A stretch of 64,000 bases of DNA from Bacteroidota bacterium. Lineage in GTDB: Bacteria; Bacteroidota; Bacteroidia; Chitinophagales; Chitinophagaceae. Below the pieces are notes generated by a model. The model was not told the DNA's origin, did no database searches, and saw nothing but the letters and a program-made list of their open reading frames with translations. The translations under genes and the position numbers were made by a program. Below are positions 28,626 to 45,767 of the stretch, in pieces. The stretch covers positions 1 to 64,000 of the forward strand of contig JAFDYG010000505.1 in NCBI GenBank assembly GCA_018267545.1, given 5' to 3'. The first letter of the stretch is position 1, and every line of letters begins with the position of its first letter.

Positions 28626-30062
28626 TTACAACACATTCTCCAACTTCACCACCCACGCATATCCCCCGGAAGGAAGATTAGGATAAACCCCCTTCAAATC
28701 GACAACACACTTCCCCTTGCTAAACGTGAAGCTGACCTTCTTATCGGAAGAACCTAATAAACTAACTTTCCCCGGCGCATGCGCCAAACCCACCGAAACC
28801 ATCCCCGGCGCCGTAACGATCAAATACACATCCTTACCCTTCTGTGTCGCAAAAACATCCTTCCCCTTCTGCTCCGCAAAAACATCCTTCCCCTGAGCCG
28901 CATCCGCCCCGCCCATAGCAACCTTCGGCCCCGCCGTCGTCCCATAAATAGCCTCCCCATTCACCCCCAGCCACGCCCCAAGATCGGCAAGCCGCTGCTG
29001 CATAATCACAGGAATGCTCCCATCCGCCGCCGGCCCGATATCCAACAATAGATTCCCACCCCTCGCCACTTTCTGAATCAGCATATGTATCACCGCATCC
29101 GAGGTCTCATAATCCCCCAGACTCTCATTTCTATTATACCCAAAGGAACCCCCAATCCCCCGGCACTCCTCCCAGGGATGATCGAACTTCTTCTTGCTCG
29201 CATCCTCATCATGCACGATATCATACTCGGTGGTATAATATCCCCCATGCTTGCTCCTCGTCTCCTTCCCCCAGCGATCGTTGACCACCACCGAATTCTT
29301 CACCGGACTTTCGTTATACAACCAGGCCAAAAACTCCTGACTCTTCCAATCCCCGCTCGGGTGCTCCCATTCTCCATCGGGCCAAACAACATCCGGCTTA
29401 TACCGCATCACCAAATCCTTCAGCTGCGGCATCATATGCTCAGATACGTACTTCGAAAAGTCAGACTTATACAACGGATTGAACCACTCATAAAGCGAAT
29501 AATAAAAACCCATATGCAAACCCTTCGCCTTTACCGCATCCGTCAGCTCACCCGCCAGATCACGATGCGGCCCGACATCCATCGCATTCCAGTTCCACGA
29601 CTGCGCACTGGGCCATAACGCAAACCCATCGTGGTGCTTCGAGGTAAGGACCACGTACTGCGCACCCGATTTCTTGAATACCTCCGCCCACTGCTCCGGA
29701 TTGAAAAGCTCCGCCTTGAACATGGGCGCAAAATCCTGGTACAAAAAATTAGGCCCATAGGTCTTATTATGATAGGCCCTAAAAGCCTTCCCCACCTTGG
29801 AGCTATCCGTAACGAGCCTATTCCAATACCACTCCGAGTATTTGGAATAAACCGCATAGTCCTTCCCAACCGGGGCCCACGCCGGAACCGAATACACCCC
29901 CCAATGGATGAAAATACCCAGCTTGGCATCCCTGAACCACTGCGGAACAGGACGGGCATCCAAACTGGCCCAATCAGCCGTATAAGTTGGCTGTGCATAA
30001 ACCGCGTGAACCGCACCGCCACTCAAAAAAACCAACAACAATAACTTGAATACCTTCTTCAT
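28626..30062 (-). CDS. GH29 alpha-L-fucosidase
   Basis: A 478-residue exported retaining alpha-L-fucosidase. A signal peptide (MKKVFKLLLLVFLSGGAVHAVYA) is followed by the GH29 barrel: WFRDAKLGIFIHWGVYSVPAW near 45, AQYVVLTSKHHDGFALWPS near 120 and the nucleophile motif VVWPDGEW near 215. A beta-sandwich follows. The stretch KDVFAEQKGKDVFATQKGKDVY near 415 is a small internal repeat of 10-11 residues. ATG 30062 is chosen because it begins the signal peptide. It lies 5 bp after the preceding gene. It removes fucose from glycan side chains in the periplasm. Confidence 0.94.
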   Translation of the reverse strand: MKKVFKLLLLVFLSGGAVHAVYAQPTYTADWASLDARPVPQWFRDAKLGIFIHWGVYSVPAWAPVGKDYAVYSKYSEWYWNRLVTDSSKVGKAFRAYHNKTYGPNFLYQDFAPMFKAELFNPEQWAEVFKKSGAQYVVLTSKHHDGFALWPSAQSWNWNAMDVGPHRDLAGELTDAVKAKGLHMGFYYSLYEWFNPLYKSDFSKYVSEHMMPQLKDLVMRYKPDVVWPDGEWEHPSGDWKSQEFLAWLYNESPVKNSVVVNDRWGKETRSKHGGYYTTEYDIVHDEDASKKKFDHPWEECRGIGGSFGYNRNESLGDYETSDAVIHMLIQKVARGGNLLLDIGPAADGSIPVIMQQRLADLGAWLGVNGEAIYGTTAGPKVAMGGADAAQGKDVFAEQKGKDVFATQKGKDVYLIVTAPGMVSVGLAHAPGKVSLLGSSDKKVSFTFSKGKCVVDLKGVYPNLPSGGYAWVVKLENVL

Positions 30063-30067
30063 ATTAC

Positions 30068-33000
30068 TCAATATAAAATTGCTCCTATAAACATCGCCTG
30101 CCCCTGATAAGGGGCCCAATCCTTCACCACCGCATTACGCGTCTTCAAAATCGCAGCTTTATCTATCGGCGCCTTCGACAACCGGATAGTAGCCGTATGT
30201 TTCCCCTCCGGCAGATCCGAAAGGATAAAATAATTCAATCTATAATACGTACAAAACGCATCGAATCTACTAATGACCCTCGGCGCCTGCCCATCGATAA
30301 CCACTTCGACCGCTCCGGTCCCCGGCCCCATGATATCCGCCAATCCAAAACGCGTCCCCTTGAACCTCACCGTAACGCTCGCATCCGTCGACGAGGTCCC
30401 ATACACCTTCGGCAACAACGGAAAATATTCCCTCCCCTTCGTCACCGAATCCGTGATCCCCCAATCCCCGCTCAGCTTCGCATTCCCCGGTAGACTAATC
30501 ATCCCCGCCTCGCTCCAATTTTCCTTCTCCAACGCCGCCGGCAAATTATGCTTCACCGCAACCCCTTGCCCCGCCATCTTCAGCAGACCCTCACCCAACA
30601 CCCTCGTATATATCTTATGCCCGGTCTCCGGCAACGGATGCACCCCATCTATCGAAAACAAAGGCACAGCAGAAGAATCCTCTCTCTTCCCCAATATCAG
30701 CATCTTACCATTAGTAATCTCATCCACAACCCGCAACCCCATATGAATACTGGGAATATCATAATGCGACGCAACCTCTTCCATCGCCGTAACAGAAGTA
30801 GGAAACACCCCCTTCTGTAAAAGCGCAAGATTCTCCGCGGCAAAAGTATATATAAAACATACATCCGTAGAAGCCCCACCCTTCCTGATCTGTCTCACTA
30901 TCCCCTCCATCGTCTCCCTCACAAACCGCATAGGCATCTTATTATCATTGACCGCAAACTCGACAAATACCAGATCAGGCCGATGATCGATCACATGCTC
31001 CTTAACCCTGCACGCGCCAAAATCCGAACCCGTCCCACTCACCGCCGCCATGATCTCTTCGAACTGAACACCCGGATACTTCCCGCGAAGCCACGTCATA
31101 ATCTGATCCCGATAGCCGCCGCCCGCCCTCGTTATACTTCCCCCCAAAAAAGCAACCCGCACAGGCCCTCCACTTCTAATCTTCGCAAAAAAATTAGGCA
31201 ACCCACCCCTAATCGTAATCTCCTTCGCAGGCAACAACGAATCAGGCCTCCCATACCCCTTCATCGCCTCCAACCACCGGCCGGCAATAACCCTCGCCCC
31301 TTCCCGATTCGGATGCACCTTATCATCGATCGTATACTTCGACCAATCCCACCCCTTACTCTGATCCACAAATACCACCGTCGAGTCCCGCAACGAATCC
31401 ACCATCCGCCGAATAGCCCCATTCAATTCCGGAATATAGGAATACTTCGGCAGCTTGCCGCTGGTGATAACACCCGCCACAAAAACCAAAGCCCTTGGAT
31501 TGATTTTTTTAATAGTCTGTATAATAGTCAGCTGCGCCCGCACGATCCCCTGCACCGGAGCCTCCTCGACAAAATGATTATGGCCAGCATGCAACAAAAC
31601 CACATCCGCCGGAAACGCCCGATAGATGCTATCGATATGCGCAGCCAAAAACTCCGCCGTCTTCCCGCTAAACCCCGAATGATACAGGCTGTCGCCCCCC
31701 TGCACCGAAAGACGAGGCCCAACCAACCGCCCCGCAAACCCACTCGCCTTCATCAACGAATCCAACGGAAACAGATACGAAAAGAACCCCGGCCCTCCCT
31801 CCGTAATCGAATCCCCCAATCCCAACACCGTCATCCCATTAACCCTTCGCACCGGAAAGCTTACCCTACTCCCATCATTCCTAACAGCAACAATATCAAA
31901 CGCAACAACATCGCCTACGGAAGAAAGCGGAATCGAAAACTCGAACGGATAAGCCGCATCCCTAACCGTCTTCCATTCTCCACCATTGATGCTATATCTC
32001 AAGCTGCACTCCTTCCACTCCTTCTCCGTCTTATTACAATAAGCATAAAACACAGCCATCGTATCATTAGGCTGAATAATCATTGCCGTAGCCGTAGCCA
32101 GACTATCCTCCCTCGACACAACTCGAACAAATCTCTCCCCACCAACGCGCTTACCAGCCCCCCCCACTCCACCCAAACCAAAAATCCCCTTTATCTGTAC
32201 ACACCCCAACCCTCCCGCCGGCAATTCCACCGACACCTCCCCATTCACCATCTCCCCATTCACTTTCTTCCCCTCCTTATCATATATAACCACCTCATAC
32301 CGCTTACCACCTACCCACGGAATAACAGACCTATTCAACCGCACATGCTCCGTCCCCCCCACACCCGAAGTATTCGCAAACGCAATAAACAAATCCCGGG
32401 AATTCCGCCCCATCAAATAATTAAACGCCACCCCATCCGACACCAACGCCCGCGACGGCATCCACAGCTGCACCCCCTCATTACCCATCATCTTTCCCTT
32501 CTTCGCCCCATACACCTGGCTGCTCAAAAACGCATACCCCGGCGCATAAGTCCCCGGAAAATCAATCCTACCGGAAGAACGATAGTAAAAATCAGAAACC
32601 AAAAAATCCACCAGCAACGCTAGGTGCGGCCAAACATGGTTATAAAAGATCGCATTGTATTTTACATCATAAAACGGATGCATCGGATAATCCGCTCTTT
32701 GATACACATCCGTATGCAACGAAGTGACATAATAGCCCGGAAAATTAGCATACCGCCCCACAACAGCATTATAAGCCGCATTCCTCAATAACGTGTCCCC
32801 CGTATAATGAGCCAGCCTAAGCAGCCAGGCCGCATGATGCGCCAGCATCACCGGACCGAAAGCATACGTATTCGGGGCCTCCGGCACAAGCCCATTCAAA
32901 GAGGTCTGCCAAGCAGGAACCGAAGCCTCCGGGACCGCCGATACCTCATCCATCGGGACAAAAGGTGAACCCTCCACCGCACTCACCCGCCGACCCGGAA

Positions 33001-34702
33001 ATATCCCTTTGACAGCTCCCCCCTTATTCACAACAACATTCCCCGCCGGCGGCATAGGATTACTTCTCGTCCATAGCAAAAACTGCCTCGCCCCCACCAA
33101 AGCGGCTTCCAAAAACTCCCGGTCATGACTCTCCTCGAAAAGCTCGAAAAGATCGTAGATCCTATAACCATAGTCGGTAGTAAAGCCCGCTCCCCGGTCC
33201 CTAAGCCCCGGCGAGTCGAAGAAAGACTTCGAATAACGATAATATACCTGCTGCAGATACTCCTTCGCCCCCTCTACCGCCTTGCCCAAATCCTCCTGCC
33301 TATGATGAAGCCTATATCTCGCCAGATAATCCTGCCAGCTGCCTCCACCTGTCTCCGTATTCATATTCAATGACCTCCGATGACCGAAAAGTCGATCAAC
33401 CTCTACAGCAAAAGCAGGCGTACGTCCCCCCGTCAATTCATCCAGCCCCACCAGCTCCCCGATATCCGCACACGGTCCCTTCAACAAATGCGAAGGAGCC
33501 TGCGCCTGCCCCGGCGTATCGCTCGTCGAATACAAAAATTTCTCCCGGCTCATGACATATTCCATCATCGGAATCGCCCTGCGCCGCAAAATCTCATTAT
33601 TTCCCGTAAGCATCGCCAGACTCAACGAATGCAGCGCCGAAACATTCTTTACCGTCCCCGGTACATCGAACTGATAGTTCGATGCTTTCAATTCTTCATT
33701 CCACCCGCTATAAACATCGTTCATCGCAAAGTCCAGCATATTGTCCAAAACACCATTCAACGAAGTCCTCACATTCTCCCTCTCACTCCTATAATGAAAT
33801 ACCGAGCCCAAAATCCACGAGATCCCCTTCTGCCAATCCCCAGGATAAAGCAAATACACCAACGAAAGATGAAATTTATCCCCCTTCTTCAACCTCGCAC
33901 CAGCAGTCCCCGGCAACGGCGCATAAATCGAAGGCTGCGCCTTCCCATTCATACCCCGAACCGCCAATCCAAAAAGACTATTAGCCTTCGGCCCATCCTC
34001 CGGAAACACCGACCAAAATTTATTATCAGCCCTACCCGCATTGTTCCACTGCGCAGCCAATGCATACCGATAAGGGATATCCGACAACGACACCGCTAAC
34101 CCCTCACTATACCCATCATGATTCGTAAACACCGCCGCCGTATTGGCATAAGCCTCCTCCGTCAACGCAAACCGGCTCGGAAACCTCTTCCAGCTCCAGG
34201 TCAACGGCTGATAAACAAAATCCACCGCCGACGAATCCACCTGCGGCATTCCAACAAACCCAAGCGAATAATTCCCCGGCTTCTCCGCCTCGAACCCCAT
34301 CTCAAACACCGGCGCCTGCTGGTCCTCCACAAACTTCACCACCAACGACACCTTCGCAGCACCAAAAGAAAACACAATCCGCCCACCCTTCACCTCGTAC
34401 GATTTAGCCATCACCTCCACACTCCCAAGCGCCCCTATATCCTGCGTCTGCCCACCACCAACCTTCCACGCCACCACCCCCGGCTGCCCATCCATCGACG
34501 AACCAACCATCTCAGTCTCCCCCGCCCTATATACCAACCGCAGCTTTGCTAAAATCGTCCGCTTCAATCCACTCGCCTTATGCATGACCACAAACGACGA
34601 ACCACCCGCAGGCTGCACCGAGTAATAGGCATTCTCAATGCCAACCTGCCCCCAGACATCCACAGAAAAAAACAATAGCGCCGCAAAAACGAAAGTCTTC
34701 AT
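30068..34702 (-). CDS. giant exported protein: alpha-toroid-like region plus two SGNH esterase domains
   Basis: A 1544-residue exported protein (signal peptide MKTFVFAALLFFSVDVWG). Residues about 20-300 are a beta-sandwich. About 310-720 are helical with repeated Trp/Tyr-rich segments, looking like an (alpha/alpha) toroid of a lyase or hydrolase that I do not recognise. A first SGNH hydrolase has Ser965 (GLGDSITEGG), Asn in HAGHNHF and the Asp-His pair in DKVHPN. A second has Ser1189 (FLGGSITRAG), AVNDNK and DGVHPLPETGH. A C-terminal beta domain follows. It probably removes acyl groups and cuts the glycan in one polypeptide. It starts one base after the previous stop. Confidence 0.85.
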   Translation of the reverse strand: MKTFVFAALLFFSVDVWGQVGIENAYYSVQPAGGSSFVVMHKASGLKRTILAKLRLVYRAGETEMVGSSMDGQPGVVAWKVGGGQTQDIGALGSVEVMAKSYEVKGGRIVFSFGAAKVSLVVKFVEDQQAPVFEMGFEAEKPGNYSLGFVGMPQVDSSAVDFVYQPLTWSWKRFPSRFALTEEAYANTAAVFTNHDGYSEGLAVSLSDIPYRYALAAQWNNAGRADNKFWSVFPEDGPKANSLFGLAVRGMNGKAQPSIYAPLPGTAGARLKKGDKFHLSLVYLLYPGDWQKGISWILGSVFHYRSERENVRTSLNGVLDNMLDFAMNDVYSGWNEELKASNYQFDVPGTVKNVSALHSLSLAMLTGNNEILRRRAIPMMEYVMSREKFLYSTSDTPGQAQAPSHLLKGPCADIGELVGLDELTGGRTPAFAVEVDRLFGHRRSLNMNTETGGGSWQDYLARYRLHHRQEDLGKAVEGAKEYLQQVYYRYSKSFFDSPGLRDRGAGFTTDYGYRIYDLFELFEESHDREFLEAALVGARQFLLWTRSNPMPPAGNVVVNKGGAVKGIFPGRRVSAVEGSPFVPMDEVSAVPEASVPAWQTSLNGLVPEAPNTYAFGPVMLAHHAAWLLRLAHYTGDTLLRNAAYNAVVGRYANFPGYYVTSLHTDVYQRADYPMHPFYDVKYNAIFYNHVWPHLALLVDFLVSDFYYRSSGRIDFPGTYAPGYAFLSSQVYGAKKGKMMGNEGVQLWMPSRALVSDGVAFNYLMGRNSRDLFIAFANTSGVGGTEHVRLNRSVIPWVGGKRYEVVIYDKEGKKVNGEMVNGEVSVELPAGGLGCVQIKGIFGLGGVGGAGKRVGGERFVRVVSREDSLATATAMIIQPNDTMAVFYAYCNKTEKEWKECSLRYSINGGEWKTVRDAAYPFEFSIPLSSVGDVVAFDIVAVRNDGSRVSFPVRRVNGMTVLGLGDSITEGGPGFFSYLFPLDSLMKASGFAGRLVGPRLSVQGGDSLYHSGFSGKTAEFLAAHIDSIYRAFPADVVLLHAGHNHFVEEAPVQGIVRAQLTIIQTIKKINPRALVFVAGVITSGKLPKYSYIPELNGAIRRMVDSLRDSTVVFVDQSKGWDWSKYTIDDKVHPNREGARVIAGRWLEAMKGYGRPDSLLPAKEITIRGGLPNFFAKIRSGGPVRVAFLGGSITRAGGGYRDQIMTWLRGKYPGVQFEEIMAAVSGTGSDFGACRVKEHVIDHRPDLVFVEFAVNDNKMPMRFVRETMEGIVRQIRKGGASTDVCFIYTFAAENLALLQKGVFPTSVTAMEEVASHYDIPSIHMGLRVVDEITNGKMLILGKREDSSAVPLFSIDGVHPLPETGHKIYTRVLGEGLLKMAGQGVAVKHNLPAALEKENWSEAGMISLPGNAKLSGDWGITDSVTKGREYFPLLPKVYGTSSTDASVTVRFKGTRFGLADIMGPGTGAVEVVIDGQAPRVISRFDAFCTYYRLNYFILSDLPEGKHTATIRLSKAPIDKAAILKTRNAVVKDWAPYQGQAMFIGAILY

Positions 34703-34703
34703 A

Positions 34704-37700
34704 TCATTTAATAATATCAGGTTCAATCTGAATAAGCCGCATCCCATACGCATCCACCCCCACAGAAAGTCTAACCTCCCCTCCCTCAGCCTTAACCACC
34801 GACGACCTCCGGTCCATCCCATTCAACGCTGCCACCTCCTCCGAAGAAAAATCCTTCTCATACCGGTCAGCGCCCCTCGTCAGCGGCAACGTCTGGTACT
34901 TTCCTTGCGACAAAACCTTTTCAAAAACACTTCCCCCGGAGCTACTATACCACTCCGTAACCTTCACCCTCCCAAAACCAGCCGGCAGTCCCTTCACCAG
35001 CACCTCCACATCCGCATAACGAAGCGGCGCCGCCTCCCTATAAAAAATCGAAGGAGACGCACAAAAAACCAAAACACTGACCTTCCCCTCCTCCTTTGTA
35101 GCTATCGCATGTAACCCATACCCCTGCTCATCCACAGGCGTTGCACGAACCGGCACTTTCCAATCCCCCAGCTTACTCCGCAACAACATCCCCTTCGCAT
35201 AGGCGGATAATACATTCTGCCGCCCATAAGTAAGCAAGGCAAAATGCCACCCTGCCCCACTAATAGGAAGCCAACGACCCAAAAATTCTTTTTCATAGTA
35301 ATCCTGAAGCGCCGTCGTAAAAGAAGCCATCGCCGCCTCCTTCTTCATCGCCCCCTCCAAATCGCTCAGGTCCTCGATCGTAGACGGCTCCGCCAGCCCC
35401 ATCTCATCCACGATCACCGGCAGCCCCATATCCATCTTATGAATCTTCAACAAACGCCGCAAGCTATCCCCCACCCCCTGCACCATCGCAGGATAGTTAC
35501 CCGGAAATAGATAGGTATGCCACGTAATATAATCGAGCCGCTTTGCAGCAGACTTATCCCTGCTATACCTCGACAAAAATCCGTCGATAAACGCCCATCG
35601 GCTGCCCGGATTATTGCTCCCCAATCCCGCAACCATCAATTGCTCTCCCAAAGGCCGTCCTTTATTGAACACAGCTACCGCCTCATACAAACACTTAAAA
35701 AATTCATAATGCGCATTCGCATGCACCTCGGACGAAGACATATTATCCAGCTCATAAGGCATCTGAACAATCTTCAATGCAGGACAGGCCCCCTTTGCAA
35801 ACCGAAGCGTCGTCAAATATCCCTCTCGTATCTTATCCCATTCCGCGCCCGGAATACCCGAAGCCGGCAACGCCAAACGCCCCGCCTGACTATATTGTCT
35901 GTATAATTTTACGATCGGAGACAGCTGCAAATCCAGCACGACAGTATCGGAAAAATCCCCCGCCACGCTCAACCAATTTCTCAAATAAGCCGCCTCCACA
36001 GAATCCATCTCCGAAGGATTATCCATCTTCCAAGGCAGATTATGATGTTGATATCGGAACAAGGAAAACCGCCTCCCCAACGCCCCCGTCACCGCCCTCG
36101 CCATCTCTTTCATCTGCCCCGACGGCGCCCCATACTGAAAATCCTTAACCGGATTCCCAGAATAAGCCGTCACCCGCAGTTCCCCCCTATCTCGTTTCTC
36201 CATAGGCCCCTGACAAAAAACCTCCACCTTTCCCTTCTTCATCAATCTTTCCGACACTAAAGCCGTCGACTCCTTCCATTCCCGAAGCCGCTGGTCATGC
36301 AGCCGGGAAGCCGCCGCAATAGAATCTACAGAAACCCCGCCAAGCAAATCCACACTCCTATACAACGATCCCAACACCAACGACGACTCCACATCCATAT
36401 GATGAGTAACCGAGCTAAAAACAAACCGGACCCTCTCTCCATATGCCACCAATTGCGGATACACCCGTATCCGCATCATCCCCACCACACTCACCAGCGG
36501 CTTCACCCCCACAGGACTAACGACCTTCTGTGCAATAAACTCCACCTTACACATCCCGCCCGTAAAAGAAACGAAAGGCTGCGGACGCAGCTTACAAACG
36601 ATCGTCTCCTCTCCCGCTCCCTTTATCCGAAGCGAAAAAGCAATATCTTCTTCCGACCCTATCGTATACATAAAAGGCAGCAAAAACGAAACCGCCGTCC
36701 CCGCCGCCCCATAAGGCACCACTTCACTAACACACTCCACCTCCCTCGCATAAGGCGAGCCTCCCCTAAAAAGCAACGGCACACCCTGTATCACCGAACC
36801 ATCCCACCCCTGATACGACTGCGACCACAACGACCCATCATACCACCCAAACTTCCCCCGCATCGCATCCTCCCGCGCAGCTGCCCCTTCCGGAAACGGA
36901 AACTCGCTATACCCATACCTCCATTTAAATAATATCTGCTGATCTCCCCGATACTCCTGCGCAGCACCCTTGACACAAAAAAGCAGCACCAGCCCCAAAA
37001 CCATATACTGCTTCACCAGCACTCCCCCCGCAACACCCACAATCACAATCCCCACCACAAGTGCCACACCCCCATTATCCGCAATCGCCCCCAGCACCGC
37101 AATCCCCAACCCCACAAACGCCGTACTCCACGCAATCACTCTTATCCCAAACCGATTTTGCCGAACAGCCTCCTCCGAACCAGACCGCTCTCCGCCCCCA
37201 TCCCCCGATGAGAGCGACAACGACAAATAATCCATATCCTTCCCCTTCATCCACCCATACAGCTCGAACAACAACAGTAGTACCAACGGAAAACCCACCC
37301 CCAACGCCGTCTCAGCCGTACGAGACAGCTTGACCCCAATCACCACCGGCCCAAGTATCTTAAAAAACAAACTCACTACCAATGAAACCACAGAAACAAA
37401 AAGCAGCGACCCCGAAGTCTGCCGCCGGGAGAAAAGCGAATAAATCACCGGCCCAAACAAACTCCCACCCGCAATAGCCGCCGTACTCAGCACCACCTCC
37501 ACAATACCCCCAGCCGCCGGCACCAGTATCGCCAAAAATATCGTCCCCGCGCCAAACAAAACGGTGAACACACGAGCGACCAATATCGTCCGCTTCTCCG
37601 AGCTCCGCTTAAAAAAGACATCCCTATAAATATCCTGCGCAAAAATGACCGCCGCAGTATTGATCGTCGTATTCGCCTTGCTCGCAGTAGCCGCAATCAT

Positions 37701-38651
37701 CCCCGAAAGCACCAGACCGATCAGCCCCGCCGGAAGCACCTTCTGGCAAAGCATCATATAAGCCCCCTCGGCCTCCATCCCCTGTAATCCAGGATTGATG
37801 ACCCGATAGATCATCGGCGGCAGCATCCAGATAACCGGAGCAACCAGGTAAAGCGCCGTAAACAAATACGCCACCTTCTTCGCATTACCAATAGAAGACA
37901 CCGAAGTGTACCGCTGTACATAGCTCCAATTACCCGCAATGTAGACCACCTGGTAGATAAAGAAGGCTACCATAAACCCAATACTATATTCCTTATTGAC
38001 CGGCTCGAAAAACCGCGCAGGCGCGCGCTGCAGAAATTCCCCCATCCCCCCGACGGTATGAAGGGACAGCGGTATGATGATGATCACCGCCGCCGTAAGA
38101 ATGACAAACTGCACCACATCGGTCGCAAGCACCCCCCAAAGACCACCCCCGGTAGTATAAATGATGATCGTAATCCCGATAACCGTAATACAAGCCTCCA
38201 AAGAAAAAGGTGTAGCCACATAAACGATCTTACCCACCGCATACAAAACCGCGGCCGTCGAAGCAAGACTATATAGCAGCACCATATAGCTATAATACTG
38301 CTTTGCCGTCTTCCCAAACCGCTTTCCCAAATACTCCGCAGCCGTCGTAGCCCCGGTCTTCTTCCATCGCCCCGCAATAAACAAGGCCGTAACAAAACCG
38401 CTAAGACACATCGTAAACTGTATCGCATTTGCCACCAGCCCATATCGATACGCGATAGAACCCCAAACCACAAAGGTTGCCGCAGAAAAGTAGGAGATAA
38501 AAAGCGAGAGACCATTGATCCACCAGGGCGTCTGACCACCCGCCTCGAAAAACGACTTCGAACTCTTGCTGCTTTGCACAGTAAAGACCAGCCCGATGAT
38601 AACCATAAGGACGGCAAAAATGCTCATTACCCCAAAATCCAGTTTACCCAT
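34704..38651 (-). CDS. Na+/solute symporter fused to exported GH-A-like glycosidase
   Basis: A single frame of 1315 residues. Residues 1-549 are a sodium:solute symporter (SSS) with 13 or more membrane helices (GQTPWWINGLSLFISYFSAATF, IYTTGGGLWGVLATDVVQF, SGMIAATASKANTTINT). Residue 550 is a Met that begins a perfect signal peptide (MVLGLVLLFCVKGAAQ). It is followed by a 750-residue exported protein with a clan GH-A-like barrel; candidate acid/base is Glu967 (MPYELDN) and nucleophile Glu1083 (VDEMG). The codon just before Met550 is TAT (37005-37007), one base from TAA or TAG. So this is a stop-loss fusion or a sequencing error. Neighbours are the FAD oxidoreductase (12 bp) and the SGNH giant (1 bp). 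Confidence 0.85.
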   Translation of the reverse strand: MGKLDFGVMSIFAVLMVIIGLVFTVQSSKSSKSFFEAGGQTPWWINGLSLFISYFSAATFVVWGSIAYRYGLVANAIQFTMCLSGFVTALFIAGRWKKTGATTAAEYLGKRFGKTAKQYYSYMVLLYSLASTAAVLYAVGKIVYVATPFSLEACITVIGITIIIYTTGGGLWGVLATDVVQFVILTAAVIIIIPLSLHTVGGMGEFLQRAPARFFEPVNKEYSIGFMVAFFIYQVVYIAGNWSYVQRYTSVSSIGNAKKVAYLFTALYLVAPVIWMLPPMIYRVINPGLQGMEAEGAYMMLCQKVLPAGLIGLVLSGMIAATASKANTTINTAAVIFAQDIYRDVFFKRSSEKRTILVARVFTVLFGAGTIFLAILVPAAGGIVEVVLSTAAIAGGSLFGPVIYSLFSRRQTSGSLLFVSVVSLVVSLFFKILGPVVIGVKLSRTAETALGVGFPLVLLLLFELYGWMKGKDMDYLSLSLSSGDGGGERSGSEEAVRQNRFGIRVIAWSTAFVGLGIAVLGAIADNGGVALVVGIVIVGVAGGVLVKQYMVLGLVLLFCVKGAAQEYRGDQQILFKWRYGYSEFPFPEGAAAREDAMRGKFGWYDGSLWSQSYQGWDGSVIQGVPLLFRGGSPYAREVECVSEVVPYGAAGTAVSFLLPFMYTIGSEEDIAFSLRIKGAGEETIVCKLRPQPFVSFTGGMCKVEFIAQKVVSPVGVKPLVSVVGMMRIRVYPQLVAYGERVRFVFSSVTHHMDVESSLVLGSLYRSVDLLGGVSVDSIAAASRLHDQRLREWKESTALVSERLMKKGKVEVFCQGPMEKRDRGELRVTAYSGNPVKDFQYGAPSGQMKEMARAVTGALGRRFSLFRYQHHNLPWKMDNPSEMDSVEAAYLRNWLSVAGDFSDTVVLDLQLSPIVKLYRQYSQAGRLALPASGIPGAEWDKIREGYLTTLRFAKGACPALKIVQMPYELDNMSSSEVHANAHYEFFKCLYEAVAVFNKGRPLGEQLMVAGLGSNNPGSRWAFIDGFLSRYSRDKSAAKRLDYITWHTYLFPGNYPAMVQGVGDSLRRLLKIHKMDMGLPVIVDEMGLAEPSTIEDLSDLEGAMKKEAAMASFTTALQDYYEKEFLGRWLPISGAGWHFALLTYGRQNVLSAYAKGMLLRSKLGDWKVPVRATPVDEQGYGLHAIATKEEGKVSVLVFCASPSIFYREAAPLRYADVEVLVKGLPAGFGRVKVTEWYSSSGGSVFEKVLSQGKYQTLPLTRGADRYEKDFSSEEVAALNGMDRRSSVVKAEGGEVRLSVGVDAYGMRLIQIEPDIIK

Positions 38652-38663
38652 AGAATCCGATTA

Positions 38664-40952
38664 CTAACCAGGCTGCGCCTGGCTATAACACCTAATCTCA
38701 AAAATAGCAGCAGGAACATTGGACGACGGATGCTCGCATTTAATTACAAGCTCATCCGTAACAAGCGGTTCCTCCAGCTCGACAATATTCCTCGTTTGAT
38801 AATTACCCGTGATCGCCTTAACCAACACACCCCTACCATCATAAATATAATAATTTCGAACGCAAAAGGGCATGCCCCTATCCGGATGCTGCATAAGGAC
38901 CGATTCCATTGGATGATCCATATCGGTATCCAATACTACCTGAATCCTCCGAAGAGAAACCTTCGACGGCCACTTCAGCAAAATCCGCGGCGACGCATCC
39001 GTCAGAGACGCCGCCCACGCATTAGGAGCAAAATACGGCCTCGCCACCCCATTCCCCACATTCTCCGCCTCATACGCATGAATCGGCTTCGAAAAGCTCA
39101 TCGCCAGATTCTGCCCGCCCGGCCTCCTTTTTGGCGTCCAAAATTCAAAAGCATCTACACCGATATTCTCCGGAGGCGTCTGCACCCCCGTATTCGAAAC
39201 CGCCTTATTCTCCGCCTGGAACAGCGACAACACCCCCGTCAGACGCAAATCGGACAAATAAGCCGAAACAGTCTCATTCTTCCGAAGAATAATAAACGCA
39301 TACTGATGTTCAGGAAAAACGGTCTCCCACTCCAGCGTTACACAGTTACGCCCCTTCTCCAGCGACAAAACACGCTCCTCCAAAATAACGTCAGGCGTAT
39401 AGCTTCCCTTCCGGCTACAAACAGCCAGATGCGCAAGCACCGTCGTCTTCTCCCCCGCATGCAGGTGAAACCGAATCTCCGGCAATTTCCCCGGCGACAC
39501 CGGCAACAGCTGCGCCACCCCCGTATCCATAGGATACAGCTCCCCGCTCTCCGGCATCCCCGACAATTTAAACTCCGAGCTGGCGCTAATCGTCGCCCCC
39601 TTGACAAGGTCGAGACTATCCTCATTTCGGATCCCCGGTATGAATTGTCCCGCCTTCAGCAATCGCTGTTGCAGCTCTCCAATCTTCCCCAGCACCCCTC
39701 TAGGCAACAGCCCATACTCCTTCGCCAGAACAGCGGCCATAGCCACCGCCTGCGCATTGTTGGCAGACGTGGCCATTACCCGCGAAGAACCAAACGCCAC
39801 GTGCGAGGCGCTGATAATTCGTCCTGTCAAAAAAAGGTTATCGATATTTTTACTGTAAAGCGAACGATAAGGAATGGAATAAATGCCCTTACTATGCCAC
39901 TGATTACAACCCGGCAACTCGCTAAAGACACCATCCGCCGGGTGAAGATCTATCGACCAACCGCCATACGACACAGCATCCTCCTGGTACCGCTGCTCCA
40001 CCACATCCTGCTGTATCAACATATAATCCCCTTCGAACCGCCGGCTCTCCCGCTTCCCCGGGATCGAACCAACCCACTCCAATGTATAATTGGCAGCTTC
40101 AGGGAACTTCCCCGAGTTCTTTATGTAATTCCACACGCCATATACGATCCTCCACAGCTCCCACTTTATCTTCTCCGTATCCTTCACCGTATCCAGCCTG
40201 CCGCCATATTCCAGCCACCAGAGCTTACAACCCTGGTCCTGCAGGCTAAACGTCTTATAGCGGGGAATGGTCTCGATATCCATCAGCGCAAACGAAGGCG
40301 GGATAAACTCCACCGGCTTCCCCGTATCTCTCGAATAGAAATAAAGGCTATGACCAAGCAGCTCACCATACGCCGCAGAAGGCGCGAACTTCTCATCGAA
40401 CTCTTCGCGAGATTCCGCCCCCATCCGGAACGACGCCCCCGATAGAAAAGCCACGACACCATCGCCGGAGCCATCACAGAAAAGTGGAGCGGACAACGTA
40501 TATTCGGTCTGATTCTGACTGCAAAATCCTTTAACGGCCTTAATCCTATCCGCCCCTTCCTTCACCACCTCATACACTCCCGTATTCAACAAAAGCCGGA
40601 CATTCGGCTCCTTCACCACCTTCTCGAGCAAAATAGAGTCGAATATCACCGGATTACCCTCCGGATTGCGATACGTATTCTCTACCAGCAGCTCATCCAG
40701 CAAACCGCCCTCTCTCGCCCACCGGTTGTTATTACCCATATGCGAGGTAGCGCCCAATATCCACAACCGTATCTCGCTCGATGCATTCCCCCCCAATACG
40801 GGCCTGTCCTGCACCAGCACAACCTTCAACCCTTCCCGCGCAGCGGTTATAGCACAACACACACCGGAAACTCCTCCGCCCACAACAACCAGGTCAGCAT
40901 TGATTGATTCATTAAAAAGACTTCTCGCGTTACCGCCTTCATTCAATATCAT
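38664..40952 (-). CDS. FAD-dependent oxidoreductase of PUL type
   Basis: A 762-residue flavoprotein. Residues about 18-60 are an FAD-binding Rossmann fold (ADLVVVGGGVSGVCCAITAAREGLKVVLVQDRPVLGGNASSE). A second FAD contact lies in NLFLTGRIISASHVAFGSSRVMATSANNAQAVAMA around 400. Residues about 470-760 are beta-rich and look like carbohydrate-binding sandwiches. No signal peptide is visible. Such FAD_oxidored proteins are frequent in polysaccharide loci but their reaction is mostly unknown; oxidation of a sugar hydroxyl is a guess. It lies between susD and the symporter fusion, with gaps of 12-17 bp. Confidence 0.88.
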   Translation of the reverse strand: MILNEGGNARSLFNESINADLVVVGGGVSGVCCAITAAREGLKVVLVQDRPVLGGNASSEIRLWILGATSHMGNNNRWAREGGLLDELLVENTYRNPEGNPVIFDSILLEKVVKEPNVRLLLNTGVYEVVKEGADRIKAVKGFCSQNQTEYTLSAPLFCDGSGDGVVAFLSGASFRMGAESREEFDEKFAPSAAYGELLGHSLYFYSRDTGKPVEFIPPSFALMDIETIPRYKTFSLQDQGCKLWWLEYGGRLDTVKDTEKIKWELWRIVYGVWNYIKNSGKFPEAANYTLEWVGSIPGKRESRRFEGDYMLIQQDVVEQRYQEDAVSYGGWSIDLHPADGVFSELPGCNQWHSKGIYSIPYRSLYSKNIDNLFLTGRIISASHVAFGSSRVMATSANNAQAVAMAAVLAKEYGLLPRGVLGKIGELQQRLLKAGQFIPGIRNEDSLDLVKGATISASSEFKLSGMPESGELYPMDTGVAQLLPVSPGKLPEIRFHLHAGEKTTVLAHLAVCSRKGSYTPDVILEERVLSLEKGRNCVTLEWETVFPEHQYAFIILRKNETVSAYLSDLRLTGVLSLFQAENKAVSNTGVQTPPENIGVDAFEFWTPKRRPGGQNLAMSFSKPIHAYEAENVGNGVARPYFAPNAWAASLTDASPRILLKWPSKVSLRRIQVVLDTDMDHPMESVLMQHPDRGMPFCVRNYYIYDGRGVLVKAITGNYQTRNIVELEEPLVTDELVIKCEHPSSNVPAAIFEIRCYSQAQPG

Positions 40953-40969
40953 GATAAGGTACTTTATTA

Positions 40970-42460
40970 CTATTTCCAGGCATCATTCTGCGTCAGCAGA
41001 GGATTCGCATTGATCTCCACCTGGGGTATCGGAAAATATTTATTCTTCGCCGTAGGAGTCCGCGTCGGATAATCCGCATTCACCGCAGTCGGAATCACCG
41101 TCAGGAACTTCCCCGTACGCGTAAGATCATACCAGCGATCCCCCTCGCCATAAAACTCCCAGGAGCGCTCCTGCAAAACCGAATCGACAAATGCACCCTG
41201 CGCAAGTCCCCCCGTAAGCGCCGGAACACCCGCACGCGACCTCACCGTATTGATATACGAATAGGCCGTTGCCGTTGCCCCATTGGCACGACCTTCCGCC
41301 TCGGCAGCGATCAGGTACGCATCCGCAAGACGCAGCAGATAGATGTTATTGCTCGCATAAGCTCCGACAGAATTGGGGTCCTTATACTTCCCCATGAGCA
41401 CGAGGTCTTTGGTGGCCAATCGTGTATCGATGCTCGCCTGCGGCACAAACACCCCCGCCGTAGTAGTATAGCTGGTGGCCAGCAAATCCTTCCGCTTGTC
41501 CCCGGCAGGAAAAGAATTATAAAAGGCACTAAATACGTAGATGCCGCCAGCTCCACCCTTATTATAATCGGAAGACCCGTTCGGCGCATAGAAATAGTGA
41601 ATCTGCGACTGACGCACAGGATTGGTCGTATTGTTCAGCTCGACATCGAACAGAACTTCCTGGCGGCCCAGGTCTTTCTTGGCAGCCGTAAACAGATCCG
41701 TAAAAGAAGGGACCAGCGAATACTTGTTGGAAGTAATCACCGCCTTCGCGCTGGTCAACGCATCCGCCCACTTCTCGTTATAAAGGGCCGCCTTCGCATG
41801 CAACAGCTGGGCACCCTGTTTGTAAACACGTCCCTTGACCGCAGTAGCAGCCGCATAATCCGGCAGAAGCGATTCGGCCTTGGTAAGGTCATCGAAGATC
41901 TGTTTATAGACATCGTCGATCGACGACTTCCCGACAAATGCATTATCGATCGAGTTCGTCGGCTTCGTCTTCACTACGATGCTCCCGAAATTCCGGCTGA
42001 GCGTCCAGAGGCAATAGGCCCGCATAAACAACGCCTCCCCGACGATATTATCCCTTCTCGTAGCATCCATAGGCGTCGACGGAACCTTATCGATCACCCA
42101 GTTGGCGCTTTCGATAGTGATATAGGCCCTCTTCCAGACCTCCATCGGAGACTCATTGGACCGGCCAAAACTGTTCTGCAAGGAGTAAGCCGGATCATAG
42201 GAAAATTGGGTAAGCGTATTTCTACCCACGACATTCCTTGGAAACGTCTGATCCGCCGACCAGTCGGACGCAAAGAACGGGGCGCCGCTATTGTACATTC
42301 CATAAAGATTCCCATACACAGCGGTAATCGCCGCCTCGGCCTCGGCCGCATTGGAATAAAAATCCTTGGTATAGGTGGCAGAATAAGCCTTTTCTTCCAG
42401 CGTCTTCTTGCAGCCGGAAAGAACCATCAGCAGTATGAATATATAAATGAGTTGTTTCAT
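40970..42460 (-). CDS. susD: SusD/RagB family glycan-binding lipoprotein
   Basis: A 496-residue surface lipoprotein that caps the SusC transporter and binds the glycan. The lipobox is LMVLSGC with Cys at about residue 16. The N-terminal SusD pattern (EAEAAITAVYGNLYGMY), mid-region TPR-like helices and the C-terminal RagB pattern (YLIAAEAEGRANGATATAYSYINTVRSRAGVP, LQERSWEFYGEGDRWYDLTRTGKFL) are all clear. ATG 42460 gives a proper signal peptide. It follows susC by 10 bp. Confidence 0.96.
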   Translation of the reverse strand: MKQLIYIFILLMVLSGCKKTLEEKAYSATYTKDFYSNAAEAEAAITAVYGNLYGMYNSGAPFFASDWSADQTFPRNVVGRNTLTQFSYDPAYSLQNSFGRSNESPMEVWKRAYITIESANWVIDKVPSTPMDATRRDNIVGEALFMRAYCLWTLSRNFGSIVVKTKPTNSIDNAFVGKSSIDDVYKQIFDDLTKAESLLPDYAAATAVKGRVYKQGAQLLHAKAALYNEKWADALTSAKAVITSNKYSLVPSFTDLFTAAKKDLGRQEVLFDVELNNTTNPVRQSQIHYFYAPNGSSDYNKGGAGGIYVFSAFYNSFPAGDKRKDLLATSYTTTAGVFVPQASIDTRLATKDLVLMGKYKDPNSVGAYASNNIYLLRLADAYLIAAEAEGRANGATATAYSYINTVRSRAGVPALTGGLAQGAFVDSVLQERSWEFYGEGDRWYDLTRTGKFLTVIPTAVNADYPTRTPTAKNKYFPIPQVEINANPLLTQNDAWK

Positions 42461-42470
42461 GATTTCGGTA

Positions 42471-45400
42471 TTAGAAAGTGACTTGAACACCTAAAAGATA
42501 AGAGCGGGACGCAGGATACACGACGTTATCCACCCCGAATTGCGTGTTGGAATTGCCAAAGCTGCCCACTTCAGGGTCGAAGCCCGTATACTTCGTAACC
42601 GTGAACAGATTATTGGCGCTCGCATAAGCCCTCAGATTGGAAATGCCCTTTACTTTGAAGGTATAGCCCAGCGAGATATTCTTACAGCGCAGAAACGACC
42701 CGTCCTCGAGGTAACGATCCGACAGCGGCAATCTTCCACCCTGGCTGCCCGCCGCCACCTGGAAAGTCCCGGTCGTATTGGTCGTGCTCCACCGGTTTGC
42801 AGCGCCCGCCAGCAGATTACGTCCCCCCGAAGGATTCTCGAGCGACCAGCGCGCGAGGTTGTAGATCTTACCGCCATACACACCCGAGAAGAAGGCGGAA
42901 AAGTCGAAGCCTTTATACTGCACATTGGTAGAGAACCCATAGATGAACTTGGGATTCGCATTGCCGGTGATAATCCGGTCTGCATCCGTGATCTTGCCAT
43001 CGGGTTTACCATCAGCACCACCCGCTACATCCTTCACCCGCTGAGCGCCGGGACGGGGATTGGTCACCGGCTGACCAGGAAGAATCGGGTCGCCTACCTG
43101 GAACAGCCCATCATAGACATAGGTCTTGAAAAGACCCAGCGGACTTCCTACACGCAGGATATTGTAGTTGTTGATAGCCGTCTCCTTGGTCGTGTCATCG
43201 GAAAGACGCAGCAGCTTGTTCCGGTTGATGGTGAAGTTGGTATTGACATTCCACCGCAGGTCCTTGCTCCGGATGATGTCCCCGCCAAGCGAAAGCTCGA
43301 TACCCTTGTTTTGAATAGAAGCAAAATTCCCCGTTACCGCATCATACCCGGAGGATAGCGGGAGACTCTTCTTGTAAATCAGGTCCGTCGTCTTTTTCTG
43401 GTATACATCGACGACAAAGTTCAACCGGCTATTAAAGAAATCCGCTTCCAAACCGACATCCGATTGTACCGAAGTCTCCCATTTCAAATCGGGGTTGGGA
43501 ACTCCAGTCGGCAGAATAGCCTTGTTGAGCGTATTGTTAAAGATATAATCGTTCCCCGCAGAAACCGTCGCCAGCGACTGATAAGGGTCGATAGCCGCCT
43601 GGTTACCCGTCTTCCCGATGCTGGCCCTGAGCCGCAGATTGGAAATAGCCCGCATCCCCGACATAAAGTCTTCCCTCATGATATTCCACGCCGCCGAAGC
43701 CGCCGGGAAGAACCCGTACTTGTTGTTGGTCCCGAACTTGCTGCTGCCGTCCGCACGCGCAGTGAGGTCCAGGAAGTATTTACCCTTGTAGTTATAATTG
43801 ATCCGGCCCAGGTACGAAAGAAGGTTGTCCTTCGTCCTGCCCGTGCTGATCGAAAAGTTCTTGGCCGTTTGAAGGGCCTCGTTGGTAGTGGCATCATTGA
43901 TGAAGCCATAACCGATCATATAGTTGTAATTGTTATTGTTCGATATGGTGCTGAACACGCCCGTAAACTTGAACGTATGGTCTTCATTAAAGGTCTTGTC
44001 ATACGTCAGGATGCTTTCGTGCATCAGCCGGATGAAATTGCTGTTGTACTTCATCCCATAACCACCCAAACCACCCGCCAGCGAGATCTCACCGGCAGAA
44101 AAGGCGGAAGTGGGGAAATAATAATCGTTCAGGCTATTGTTCGTATTCACACTCAGGTTAGCCCGGTACTTCAGCCCCTTCAGCAGGGTCAGATCGACAT
44201 AGAAATTGCTGAGTATCGTATTGGTGCGGGTTACATCCATCGTCTGCAGACCCAGCGCCGGGTTTCTCAGCTCGGAATAATAAGACCCATAAGGCTGATC
44301 CTTCCAGGCATACACGCTGCCATCGGCATTATAAGCCTTCAGTACGGGCGGCGCAGACAAGGCCGCTCCGATCAATGACTGGGTAAGCCCCCCACCGTCG
44401 TTGTTGACCGACCCCGTTTGTACCCGGTTATTGATAGAACGCGTCATCGTCGTATTCGTCCCGATCTTCAGCCATTTCTTTACTTCATGGTCCAGGTTCA
44501 ACCGTACCGAAAACCGGTCGAATTTTGAATTGACCACAATACCCTCCTGACCGAAATAATTCAGCGACATCAGCACCTGCGTCTTATCCGACCCGCCGGA
44601 GAAAGTAACCTGGTGGTTCTGAATAGGCGCCGTACGGAAAAGGACGTCCTGCCAGTTGGTGCCTACGCCAAAAGAATCCGTATTCGGATAACGCGGCGTA
44701 CCGCCATATATCTCGTTCTCAATCTTTGCAAATTGCGAAGCATTCAGCACGGGGATTTCCCTCGTTATCTTCTGGATGCCGTAATAACCATCGTAGCTAA
44801 CGGACGAATTACCCGCCTTGCCCCGTTTGGTCGTAATGATGATTACCCCGTTTGCCGCCTGGGAGCCGTAAATGGCGGCCGCAGAGGCATCTTTCAGCAC
44901 CTCGATCGACTCGATATCGTTGGGATTCAAAAAAGATAAGGAGCTTGGCGCGTTGGCATTTCCACCCACCCCGCTGATATTACCGAGCGTGGCAGGACCA
45001 GAAACCCCCGGCGCCGTAGTGTTCTGCACCTGAATACCATCGATGATATACAGCGGCTCCGACGACCCATTGATAGAGTTGGTGCCCCGCAGTCGGATGC
45101 TGATGCTCCCGCCCGGCGCCGCATTGTTCTGCGTCACCTGCAACCCGGCTACCCGGCCCTGCAGCCCCTGCGCCAGGTTGGCTACAGGCGTCTGCAAAAG
45201 CTCCGAGCCCTTCACCTTGGTGATAGCGCCCGTAACCTCCGACCTCTTCCGCGAGCCATACCCCACCACGATCACGTCGTCCAGGCTCTGGTTCCGCTTT
45301 TTCAGCAGAACCCGCTCATACCCCTTTCCCGAGGTGCTAAGCTCCTGCTCCTCGAAACCGGTATGGCTAATAATAATGGAAGCCCCGGCCTTTACATTCG

Positions 45401-45614
45401 CCAGGGTATAACCGCCGTCTTCTCCGGTCATGGTCGTCTGCCGCTCGCCTTTTACGCGTACGGTAGCCCCCGCAACCGGTTGGCCGTTCTCATCGATGAT
45501 AGTTCCCTTGATGGTTTGTGTCTGGGCTGACGCCGCCAGCATGGAGAGTAGTGCGACTAATAGAGTCAGGGTCGAGCGTAACCCCGCCAGCAGCCTTGGT
45601 TTTCTTTTGTTCAT
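42471..45614 (-). CDS. susC: SusC/RagA family TonB-linked outer membrane transporter
   Basis: A 1047-residue TonB-dependent glycan transporter and first gene of the operon. The signal peptide is long (MNKRKPRLLAGLRSTLTLLVALLSMLAASA). A carboxypeptidase-regulatory-like domain lies at about 33-110 (IKGTIIDENGQPVAGATVRVKG). The TonB-box region is DDVIVVGYGSRKRSEVTGAIT; the plug follows with LRGTNSINGSSEPLYIIDGIQV, then a 22-strand barrel ending in a C-terminal aromatic-rich strand. The ATG at 45614 is chosen over the upstream reading, which crosses the LacI operator region. It imports oligosaccharides captured by SusD. Confidence 0.96.
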   Translation of the reverse strand: MNKRKPRLLAGLRSTLTLLVALLSMLAASAQTQTIKGTIIDENGQPVAGATVRVKGERQTTMTGEDGGYTLANVKAGASIIISHTGFEEQELSTSGKGYERVLLKKRNQSLDDVIVVGYGSRKRSEVTGAITKVKGSELLQTPVANLAQGLQGRVAGLQVTQNNAAPGGSISIRLRGTNSINGSSEPLYIIDGIQVQNTTAPGVSGPATLGNISGVGGNANAPSSLSFLNPNDIESIEVLKDASAAAIYGSQAANGVIIITTKRGKAGNSSVSYDGYYGIQKITREIPVLNASQFAKIENEIYGGTPRYPNTDSFGVGTNWQDVLFRTAPIQNHQVTFSGGSDKTQVLMSLNYFGQEGIVVNSKFDRFSVRLNLDHEVKKWLKIGTNTTMTRSINNRVQTGSVNNDGGGLTQSLIGAALSAPPVLKAYNADGSVYAWKDQPYGSYYSELRNPALGLQTMDVTRTNTILSNFYVDLTLLKGLKYRANLSVNTNNSLNDYYFPTSAFSAGEISLAGGLGGYGMKYNSNFIRLMHESILTYDKTFNEDHTFKFTGVFSTISNNNNYNYMIGYGFINDATTNEALQTAKNFSISTGRTKDNLLSYLGRINYNYKGKYFLDLTARADGSSKFGTNNKYGFFPAASAAWNIMREDFMSGMRAISNLRLRASIGKTGNQAAIDPYQSLATVSAGNDYIFNNTLNKAILPTGVPNPDLKWETSVQSDVGLEADFFNSRLNFVVDVYQKKTTDLIYKKSLPLSSGYDAVTGNFASIQNKGIELSLGGDIIRSKDLRWNVNTNFTINRNKLLRLSDDTTKETAINNYNILRVGSPLGLFKTYVYDGLFQVGDPILPGQPVTNPRPGAQRVKDVAGGADGKPDGKITDADRIITGNANPKFIYGFSTNVQYKGFDFSAFFSGVYGGKIYNLARWSLENPSGGRNLLAGAANRWSTTNTTGTFQVAAGSQGGRLPLSDRYLEDGSFLRCKNISLGYTFKVKGISNLRAYASANNLFTVTKYTGFDPEVGSFGNSNTQFGVDNVVYPASRSYLLGVQVTF

Positions 45615-45662
45615 AAAGCATTCAATCGTTAAGGTAATAGAAGTTTGCTGGCCCAATTTACA

Positions 45663-45733
45663 ATCGTTCCCCAATCTGCAAAATTGCCACATATACAATA
45701 TGTATCGGGAACGATTTCGGCACCGTTCCCGAT
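45663..45733. promoter_or_regulatory. three LacI-type operator copies in the divergent PUL promoter
   Basis: The motif ATCGTTCCCGAT occurs at 45663-45675 (ATCGTTCCCCAAT), at 45704-45715 on the reverse strand (ATCGGGAACGAT read forward) and at 45722-45733 (ACCGTTCCCGAT). An extra 6-bp palindrome, ACATAT and ATATGT, lies at 45689-45703. The gap divides susC from the LacI-family gene, so these are likely repressor sites controlling both directions. Confidence 0.65.
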
Positions 45734-45767
45734 AAGCAATCCGCCAAATTTTCGTACTTTCAACCCA

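What the first reader, a model, noticed from the sequence alone, without database searches (positions are those of the whole stretch)
34704..38651. Symporter and exported glycosidase joined by loss of a stop codon
A Na+/solute symporter (residues 1-549) runs in frame into a protein that begins with Met and a complete signal peptide. The codon just before that Met is TAT at 37005-37007, one base from TAA or TAG. If real, a transporter and a glycosidase are made as one membrane-tethered chain, so sugars could be cut next to the importer. The internal signal sequence could also be cleaved to give two proteins from one frame. I know of no described SSS-GH fusion.
Basis: partly seen in the sequence, partly recalled or inferred. 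Interest (0 to 1): 0.8.

Follow-up and report, generated by a model that had tools for sequence, protein, structure and literature searches.

The report
Symporter–glycosidase polyprotein with internal signal peptide
A bacterium related to Niastella encodes a sugar importer and an exported sugar-cutting enzyme as one continuous protein with the enzyme's export signal kept in the middle, and its close relatives have made the same kind of join for several other importer-enzyme pairs, which suggests a real way of making two proteins from one gene.

Summary
The 1315-codon frame at 34704-38651 (minus strand) is real: a sodium/solute symporter (SSS, residues 1-549) runs without a stop into a signal-peptide core (550-564) and a 751-residue exported enzyme, probably a clan GH-A glycosidase. 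Stop loss is not supported: in Niastella yeongjuensis the operon is syntenic with separate genes, and the TAT tyrosine is conserved inside its SSS; about 93 bp differ. The join is not isolated. I found 15 stop-free junctions from an SSS into a signal-peptide-like segment in 8 genomes of this unnamed genus (3 in the window's own), in five SSS kinds, with five partners: this GH, esterase-like, rhamnosidase, sialidase, and a 2170-residue protein. All 15 have a K/R-preceded hydrophobic core followed by A|Q, the signal peptidase I site of the Bacteroidetes Q-rule; in two the contig ends before the enzyme. Best reading: a polyprotein whose internal signal peptide exports the enzyme and is cut by signal peptidase I, as in Bradyrhizobium FbcH (recalled). 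Cleavage is inferred. An uncleaved tether is the main rival, and two SSS-mutarotase fusions in the genus lack any A|Q. New variant of a known kind.

The parts
34704..38651 (-). fused ORF, 1315 aa, SSS transporter + internal signal peptide + exported enzyme
37005..38651 (-). SSS (PF00474) transporter part, residues 1-549; conserved Tyr549 = TAT at 37007-37005
36960..37004 (-). internal signal-peptide h- and c-region, residues 550-564 (MVLGLVLLFCVKGAA); predicted signal peptidase I cut after Ala564, Q565 at 36959-36957
   Evidence: cleavage inferred
34707..36959 (-). exported enzyme, residues 565-1315; no Pfam or NCBIfam match; weak model resembles GH39/iduronidase (clan GH-A)
30068..34702 (-). 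second fusion in the same operon: homologues of Niastella 1191-aa and 436-aa GDSL-type proteins in one frame (join near 31252), internal signal peptide of the second one lost
28626..30062 (-). alpha-L-fucosidase (PF01120), next gene of operon
38664..40952 (-). FAD-dependent oxidoreductase (PF12831), gene upstream of the fusion
40970..42490 (-). SusD-like protein
42471..45920 (-). SusC-like TonB-dependent receptor (true start probably near residue 103 of this ORF)
45645..46916 (+). LacI-family regulator beside the operon

Best explanation
The ORF encodes a polyprotein. Ribosomes make the SSS transporter first. Its cytoplasmic C-terminal tail (VKQY) acts as the n-region, and residues 550-564 act as the signal-peptide core, so the chain crosses the membrane again and the glycosidase is exported to the periplasm. 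Signal peptidase I then cuts after Ala564, leaving the transporter with an extra C-terminal helix and releasing the enzyme with an N-terminal glutamine (pyroglutamate by the Q-rule), in 1:1 amounts. The fused gene arose by loss of roughly 93 bp between two adjacent operon genes, and the same kind of join arose separately for five kinds of SSS in this genus. Shown: the ORF, the homologies, the separate genes in Niastella, the recurrence, the A|Q pattern. Inferred: topology, deletion, cleavage, stoichiometric benefit.
For: Niastella has the operon's genes separate and syntenic. 15 stop-free junctions in 8 genomes fall in five SSS kinds 21-31% identical to each other; each kind is closest, at 51-84%, to a different Niastella SSS that is not fused to the enzyme. 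All 15 have Ala at -1, Gln at +1, G/A/V/T/I/L at -3, a hydrophobic core and 1-5 K/R in the 12 residues before it. Of 33 AQ dipeptides in those proteins, exactly the 15 at junctions have this context (criteria set after seeing the junctions). In the rhamnosidase type the SSS's own last helix replaced the enzyme's signal core, yet [SA]A[SKH]A|Q is present in 5 of 5 species. In the esterase type 3 of 5 lack about 75 residues right after the site and still have A|Q. Cores are short in part: 5 of 15 do not reach a 19-residue hydropathy mean of 1.6. Where both partners are periplasmic (GDSL-GDSL, esterase-isomerase) the internal signal peptide is absent by inspection. SiaT, an SSS, is N-out/C-in (PMC5931594, passage). 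The mean Q-value is 71% across Bacteroidetes species (PMC5837995, passages).
Against: No protein data: cleavage, topology and stoichiometry are unproven. Junctions within a type share ancestry. A|Q could be a relic if the fusions are young; SSS parts within a type are 71-90% identical. Two SSS-L-rhamnose mutarotase fusions in the genus (G014, G007) have no A|Q, so uncut SSS-enzyme chains seem tolerated. 10 of 15 cores do reach a membrane-helix hydropathy. The window's own fusion is seen in one draft genome and its n-region has a single Lys. AlphaFold on residues 1-620 was useless (pLDDT 34).
Confidence: 0.6

Rival explanations
1. Uncleaved tether: the former signal peptide is now an extra transmembrane helix that holds the enzyme on the periplasmic face beside the importer.
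For: Same topology argument; 10 of 15 junction cores reach a 19-residue hydropathy mean of 1.6, the window's among them at 1.96. In the rhamnosidase type the helix is the SSS's own. The genus also has two SSS-mutarotase fusions without A|Q. Enzyme next to importer would capture product.
Against: A plain anchor has no need of small-x-A|Q at its outer end, yet 15 of 15 have it, even where neighbouring residues changed or were lost. 5 of 15 cores look too short or weak for an anchor.
Confidence: 0.24
2. Two translation starts: the enzyme is also, or mainly, made from an internal start (ATG at 37004 or GTG at 37016) and the read-through chain is minor.
For: In-frame ATG lies 15 codons before Q in the window, and GTG-AAG-CAG-TAT-ATG would read as a normal signal peptide start.
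Against: 4 of 15 junctions have no ATG in the 40 codons before Q, and 2 more have only one at -5 or -8, inside or at the end of the core. GTG/TTG codons are frequent there and uninformative.
Confidence: 0.08
3. Neutral or decaying fusion in this strain: a recent in-frame deletion with no selected function.
For: The GH has one known relative; a second fusion (GDSL-GDSL) lies in the same operon; G012 carries a rearranged esterase-type SSS with part missing.
Against: Both halves remain full length; similar joins recur in 8 genomes and five SSS kinds; a non-random sample of 573 kb of the same genome (414 ORFs, 43 polytopic; known fusions left out) held no further polytopic-signal-soluble ORF by my criteria.
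Confidence: 0.06
4. Assembly or base-call artefact at the junction.
For: Window genome is a 553-contig draft (94.7% complete); one substitution at codon 549 would make a stop.
Against: Tyr549 is conserved in Niastella; the same architecture is in other genomes, including near-complete ones: G002 (about 20 contigs), G007 (50), G009 (30).
Confidence: 0.02

Closest known systems
Bradyrhizobium japonicum FbcH cytochrome b/c1 polyprotein (recalled; not brought up)
   Same: One ORF, polytopic membrane protein followed by an exported protein, internal signal sequence cut by signal peptidase (recalled).
   Different: Different families; here transporter plus carbohydrate-active enzyme, repeated for several enzymes, in Bacteroidota.
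Niastella yeongjuensis operon (L028)
   Same: Same genes in same order, 66-84% identity for the four compared; SSS and GH 6 bp apart.
   Different: Genes are separate; the enzyme has its own full signal peptide.
SSS-sensor kinases CbrA / CrbS (PMC7918813, passages seen)
   Same: SSS domain with C-terminal fusion partner.
   Different: Partner is signalling domains after a STAC domain; no internal signal peptide described in the passages seen.
SSS-L-rhamnose mutarotase fusions in the same genus (L159, L160)
   Same: SSS with a C-terminal sugar enzyme (PF00474 + PF05336).
   Different: No A|Q site at the junction.
NanM/Kelch-SSS fusions (e.g. L090, and the front part of L063)
   Same: Sugar enzyme fused to an SSS; some here extended by a sialidase.
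   Different: Enzyme at the N-terminus, which in SiaT-type SSS faces the periplasm.
Bacteroidetes Q-rule substrates (PMC5837995 passages, PMC10653852 abstract)
   Same: A|Q at the predicted signal peptidase I site.
   Different: In what I saw those are N-terminal signal peptides; here it is internal.

Membership tests
SSS transporter (PF00474) | Profile match over curated cut-off, near full length | tested here: met
   126.4 bits vs 22.8, profile 1-396 of 406
Internal-signal-peptide polyprotein (FbcH-like) | Polytopic protein and exported protein in one frame with a signal core between them | tested here: met
Internal-signal-peptide polyprotein (FbcH-like) | Proteolytic cleavage into two products | not testable with these tools
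   needs proteomics or blot
Bacteroidetes Q-rule substrate | Gln directly after a signal peptidase I consensus (small at -1 and -3) | tested here: met
   G562-A563-A564|Q565
Bacteroidetes Q-rule substrate | N-terminal pyroglutamate after cleavage | not testable with these tools
   needs mass spectrometry
Stop-codon-loss fusion | Codon at the junction aligns with a stop in unfused relatives | tested here: not met
   aligns with Tyr in the one unfused full relative; its stop comes after 12 more codons
Glycoside hydrolase GH39 | Sequence profile match | tested here: not met
   no Pfam match for window or Niastella protein; no NCBIfam match for window
Clan GH-A glycosidase | TIM-barrel fold with two catalytic Glu | tested here: inconclusive
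   Foldseek best hits GH39 xylosidase/iduronidase, E 8e-11, TM-scores only 0.2-0.4, on a model of pLDDT 43; E967 and E1083 conserved in 2 of 2 sequences, roles inferred

The most novel reading that the evidence does not exclude
A bacterial genus repeatedly turned adjacent importer and exported-enzyme genes into polyproteins: the importer's C-terminal tail or last helix becomes the front of an internal signal peptide, and signal peptidase I cuts the chain, giving obligate 1:1 delivery of importer and periplasmic glycosidase.
Probability: 0.53. Interest if true: 0.75.

Novelty: new variant of a known kind. Interest (0 to 1): 0.6.

Why it matters
Cellular polyproteins cut at an internal signal peptide are rare in bacteria (recalled). 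Here the same arrangement appears for five importer kinds in one genus, which gives a natural set for testing how Sec and signal peptidase I handle internal signals, and why an importer and its enzyme would be made in equal amounts. It also warns annotators that a 1300-residue 'symporter' may in fact yield two proteins.

Tried and rejected
Stop-codon loss: rejected (conserved Tyr). Spread of the fusion to other genera: searches listed frames of 1043-1341 aa in G514, G536, G705, G578, G657 and G502, but the DNA showed separate SSS and enzyme genes in 6 of these 6. In one search, 12 rhamnosidase rows have frames of 1257-1311 aa; 12 of 12 have a stop listed inside the adjoining SSS match (DNA not read). 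A few other long-frame rows (for example G519, G628) were not read. So I claim fusions only for the one genus. More relatives of the GH: 0 of 97 other genomes, 0 of 394, 0 of 32, sets that overlap; one locus in genome contigs by six exact peptide patterns, which finds close relatives only. Structure prediction: GH part pLDDT 43, SSS part pLDDT 34; only the first was used, weakly. PDB searches by sequence: nothing credible. Papers: the titles and abstract starts listed by searches (15, 12, 12 and 12 papers) show no SSS-glycosidase fusion or bacterial transporter polyprotein; searches did not list the FbcH work and 65 and 66 found no paper, so FbcH is cited from recall. The library holds open-licence papers only.

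Which rows were counted: one search gave 231 PF00474 matches in 33 genomes (sum of its table; pieces of one protein can count twice) but its list was cut. I read the DNA of the listed rows with frames of 680 aa or more and some at contig ends. Left out of the 15: two SSS-L-rhamnose mutarotase proteins (G014, G007; no signal site) and a Kelch-SSS of 867 aa with no C-terminal partner (G023). Among the 15, G004 and G021 rhamnosidase type reach the contig end 25 and 9 residues after Q, so the enzyme there is assumed from the SSS kind; G021 esterase type reaches the contig end inside the esterase; G012 esterase type has a rearranged SSS front.
Full report
What is there. The minus-strand frame 38651-34704 is open for 1315 codons. 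Residues 1-549 are an SSS transporter (PF00474, 126 bits). Codon 549 is TAT at 37007-37005 and codon 550 is ATG. Residues 550-564, MVLGLVLLFCVKGAA, look like the core and cut region of a signal peptide, followed by an enzyme of 751 residues beginning with Q565.

Where it sits. The gene lies in a carbohydrate-utilisation operon on the minus strand: SusC, SusD, FAD-dependent oxidoreductase, the fusion, a GDSL-type protein, alpha-L-fucosidase, with a LacI regulator on the other strand. The gene after the fusion starts 1 bp beyond its stop. The genus is unnamed in the held data; its nearest named match here, Niastella yeongjuensis, is in Chitinophagaceae.

How the join arose. A pattern scan of the 84,980-species collection found one relative of the enzyme, in Niastella yeongjuensis (66% identity). 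There the operon is syntenic and the two genes are separate, 6 bp apart. The Niastella SSS ends VLIKQYSNTSKVELNISQ-stop; the window reads VLVKQY and goes straight into MVLGLVLLFCVKGAAQ. So Tyr549 is an old sense codon. Counting from the two sequences, the window lacks 12 SSS codons, the stop, 6 bp and 16 codons of the enzyme gene: 93 bp, a multiple of three. One in-frame deletion would do it; that is inference. A second join lies in the same operon: window ORF 30068-34702 equals two Niastella genes of 1191 and 436 aa (68% and 72% identity), and here the second partner's signal peptide is gone.

It is a pattern. A search of 33 genomes of the genus with PF00474 and reading of the listed long frames gave 15 stop-free junctions in 8 genomes: the window GH (G000); SSS-esterase-like (G000, G031, G004, G021, G012); SSS-rhamnosidase (G000, G012, G031, G004, G021); NanM-SSS-sialidase (G031, G002, G007); and a 2170-aa SSS protein in G009. 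In G004 and G021 rhamnosidase type the contig ends 25 and 9 residues after the site, so the enzyme is assumed. Pfam on one representative of each type other than the window's gives SSF with rhamnosidase domains, SSF with AXE1/glucuronyl-esterase-like matches just over cut-off plus AP_endonuc_2, NANM with SSF and BNR_2, and SSF with GLAA-B domains; three more esterase-type proteins were scanned (the esterase match is under its cut-off in two of them, and in G012 the shortened SSS is not matched).

Separate origins. The five SSS kinds are 21-31% identical to each other and each has its own closest Niastella SSS at 51-84%. In Niastella those are not fused to the enzyme: the longest of 13 PF00474 frames is 853 aa, a Kelch-SSS. 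So at least five separate joins is the simplest reading. Outside the genus I verified none (see Tried and rejected).

The junctions share one design. In 15 of 15 a hydrophobic core is preceded by K/R and followed by Ala at -1 and Gln at +1, with G, A, V, T, I or L at -3. Those 15 sites are the only ones among 33 AQ dipeptides in the proteins that have this context; the criteria were set after the junctions had been seen. In the window, esterase and sialidase types the SSS tail appears to supply the charged front and the enzyme the core; in the rhamnosidase type the SSS's own last helix is the core and only the cut region of a signal is added. Esterase-type proteins of G031, G004 and G021 lack about 75 residues after the site and still have A|Q. 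When both partners are periplasmic the internal signal is absent (GDSL-GDSL in the window; esterase-isomerase in fused proteins, against separate signal-bearing genes in Niastella).

A contrary case. G014 and G007 carry SSS proteins fused to an L-rhamnose mutarotase domain (PF05336). Their junctions have a helix but no A|Q. The partner family normally lacks a signal peptide (recalled), so there was none to keep. These show that an SSS-enzyme chain without a cut site is tolerated, which helps the tether reading; they also show that A|Q does not come with every SSS-enzyme join.

Mechanism. SiaT has 13 helices, N-out and C-in (PMC5931594, passage seen). Simple hydropathy of the window's SSS missed some helices; my own count of 15 with a cytoplasmic KQY tail is inference. 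The chain must then cross the membrane once more to bring the enzyme out, and the signal core does that. In Bacteroidetes, Gln is enriched after signal peptidase I sites (mean Q-value 71% over species, PMC5837995, passages), and its cyclisation stabilises exported proteins in Porphyromonas gingivalis (PMC10653852, abstract). A|Q is what cleavage needs and what a plain anchor does not, so I favour cleavage into transporter and free enzyme. Hydropathy does not settle it: 10 of 15 cores reach a 19-residue mean of 1.6, 5 do not. In the passages seen, PMC5837995 says pyroglutamate formation remains untested for inner membrane proteins.

Controls. A scan with similar criteria of 573 kb of the window's genome outside the window (40 pieces, not random, known fusions in C38 left out; 414 ORFs, 43 with four or more predicted helices) gave four hits, none with more than one helix before the site. 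The window gave the fusion and one SusC start artefact. In 400 kb of G002 there were two hits, one with four helices before and two after the site, one with none before; in 400 kb of Niastella one hit, with one helix before. So nothing in these samples has the fusion's architecture. Three of eight PF00474 matches of the own genome are fused.

The enzyme. No Pfam profile matches the window or Niastella protein and no NCBIfam profile the window's. A two-sequence AlphaFold model is poor (pLDDT 43), better in its centre; Foldseek places it with GH39 beta-xylosidases and alpha-L-iduronidases (E near 1e-10, TM-scores 0.2-0.4). I call it a probable clan GH-A glycosidase; E967 (PYELDN) and E1083 (VDEMG) are candidate catalytic residues by inference.

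Known or new. In the review of prokaryotic SSS proteins (PMC7918813; 12 of 19 passages for six terms seen) SSS domains fused to sensor-kinase parts are described; the passages shown mention no glycosidase. Searches listed no such case. FbcH of Bradyrhizobium is the precedent for an internal signal peptide cut from a bacterial polyprotein, from recall. I therefore rate this a new variant of a known kind.

Limits. No reads, transcripts or proteins were available. The window's own GH fusion is known from one genome. Junctions within a type share ancestry, so 15 of 15 overstates the independent evidence; five types is the fair count.

Noticed in passing
window 30068-34702: Second in-frame fusion of two GDSL-type genes in the same operon, with loss of the internal signal peptide.
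   Followed up: partly
L159 5836-7890 (G014) and L160 6611-8692 (G007): SSS fused to an L-rhamnose mutarotase domain (PF05336) with no A|Q at the junction.
   Followed up: partly
L068 1437-7949 (G009): 2170-aa ORF: SSS, A|Q junction, a large unassigned region and GLAA-B/beta-helix domains.
   Followed up: partly
L156 3352-5805 (G012): ORF whose first residues look like a different enzyme's start, joined to the end part of an SSS and then the esterase; rearranged or misassembled.
   Followed up: no
L148 3539-6253 (G697): 904-aa ORF beginning as a sialidase and continuing into another domain.
   Followed up: no
window 59576-63034: 1152-aa exported protein with about seven similar repeats of roughly 135-150 residues (by eye).
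   Followed up: no
window 47473-50325: GH106 alpha-L-rhamnosidase near the LacI regulator, plus strand.
   Followed up: no
window 2583-3728: MobA/VirD2-type relaxase (PF03432), a mobile-element trace.
   Followed up: no
Genome search output: open_frame_aa can span a stop between neighbouring genes; six long-frame rows proved to be separate genes.
   Followed up: yes
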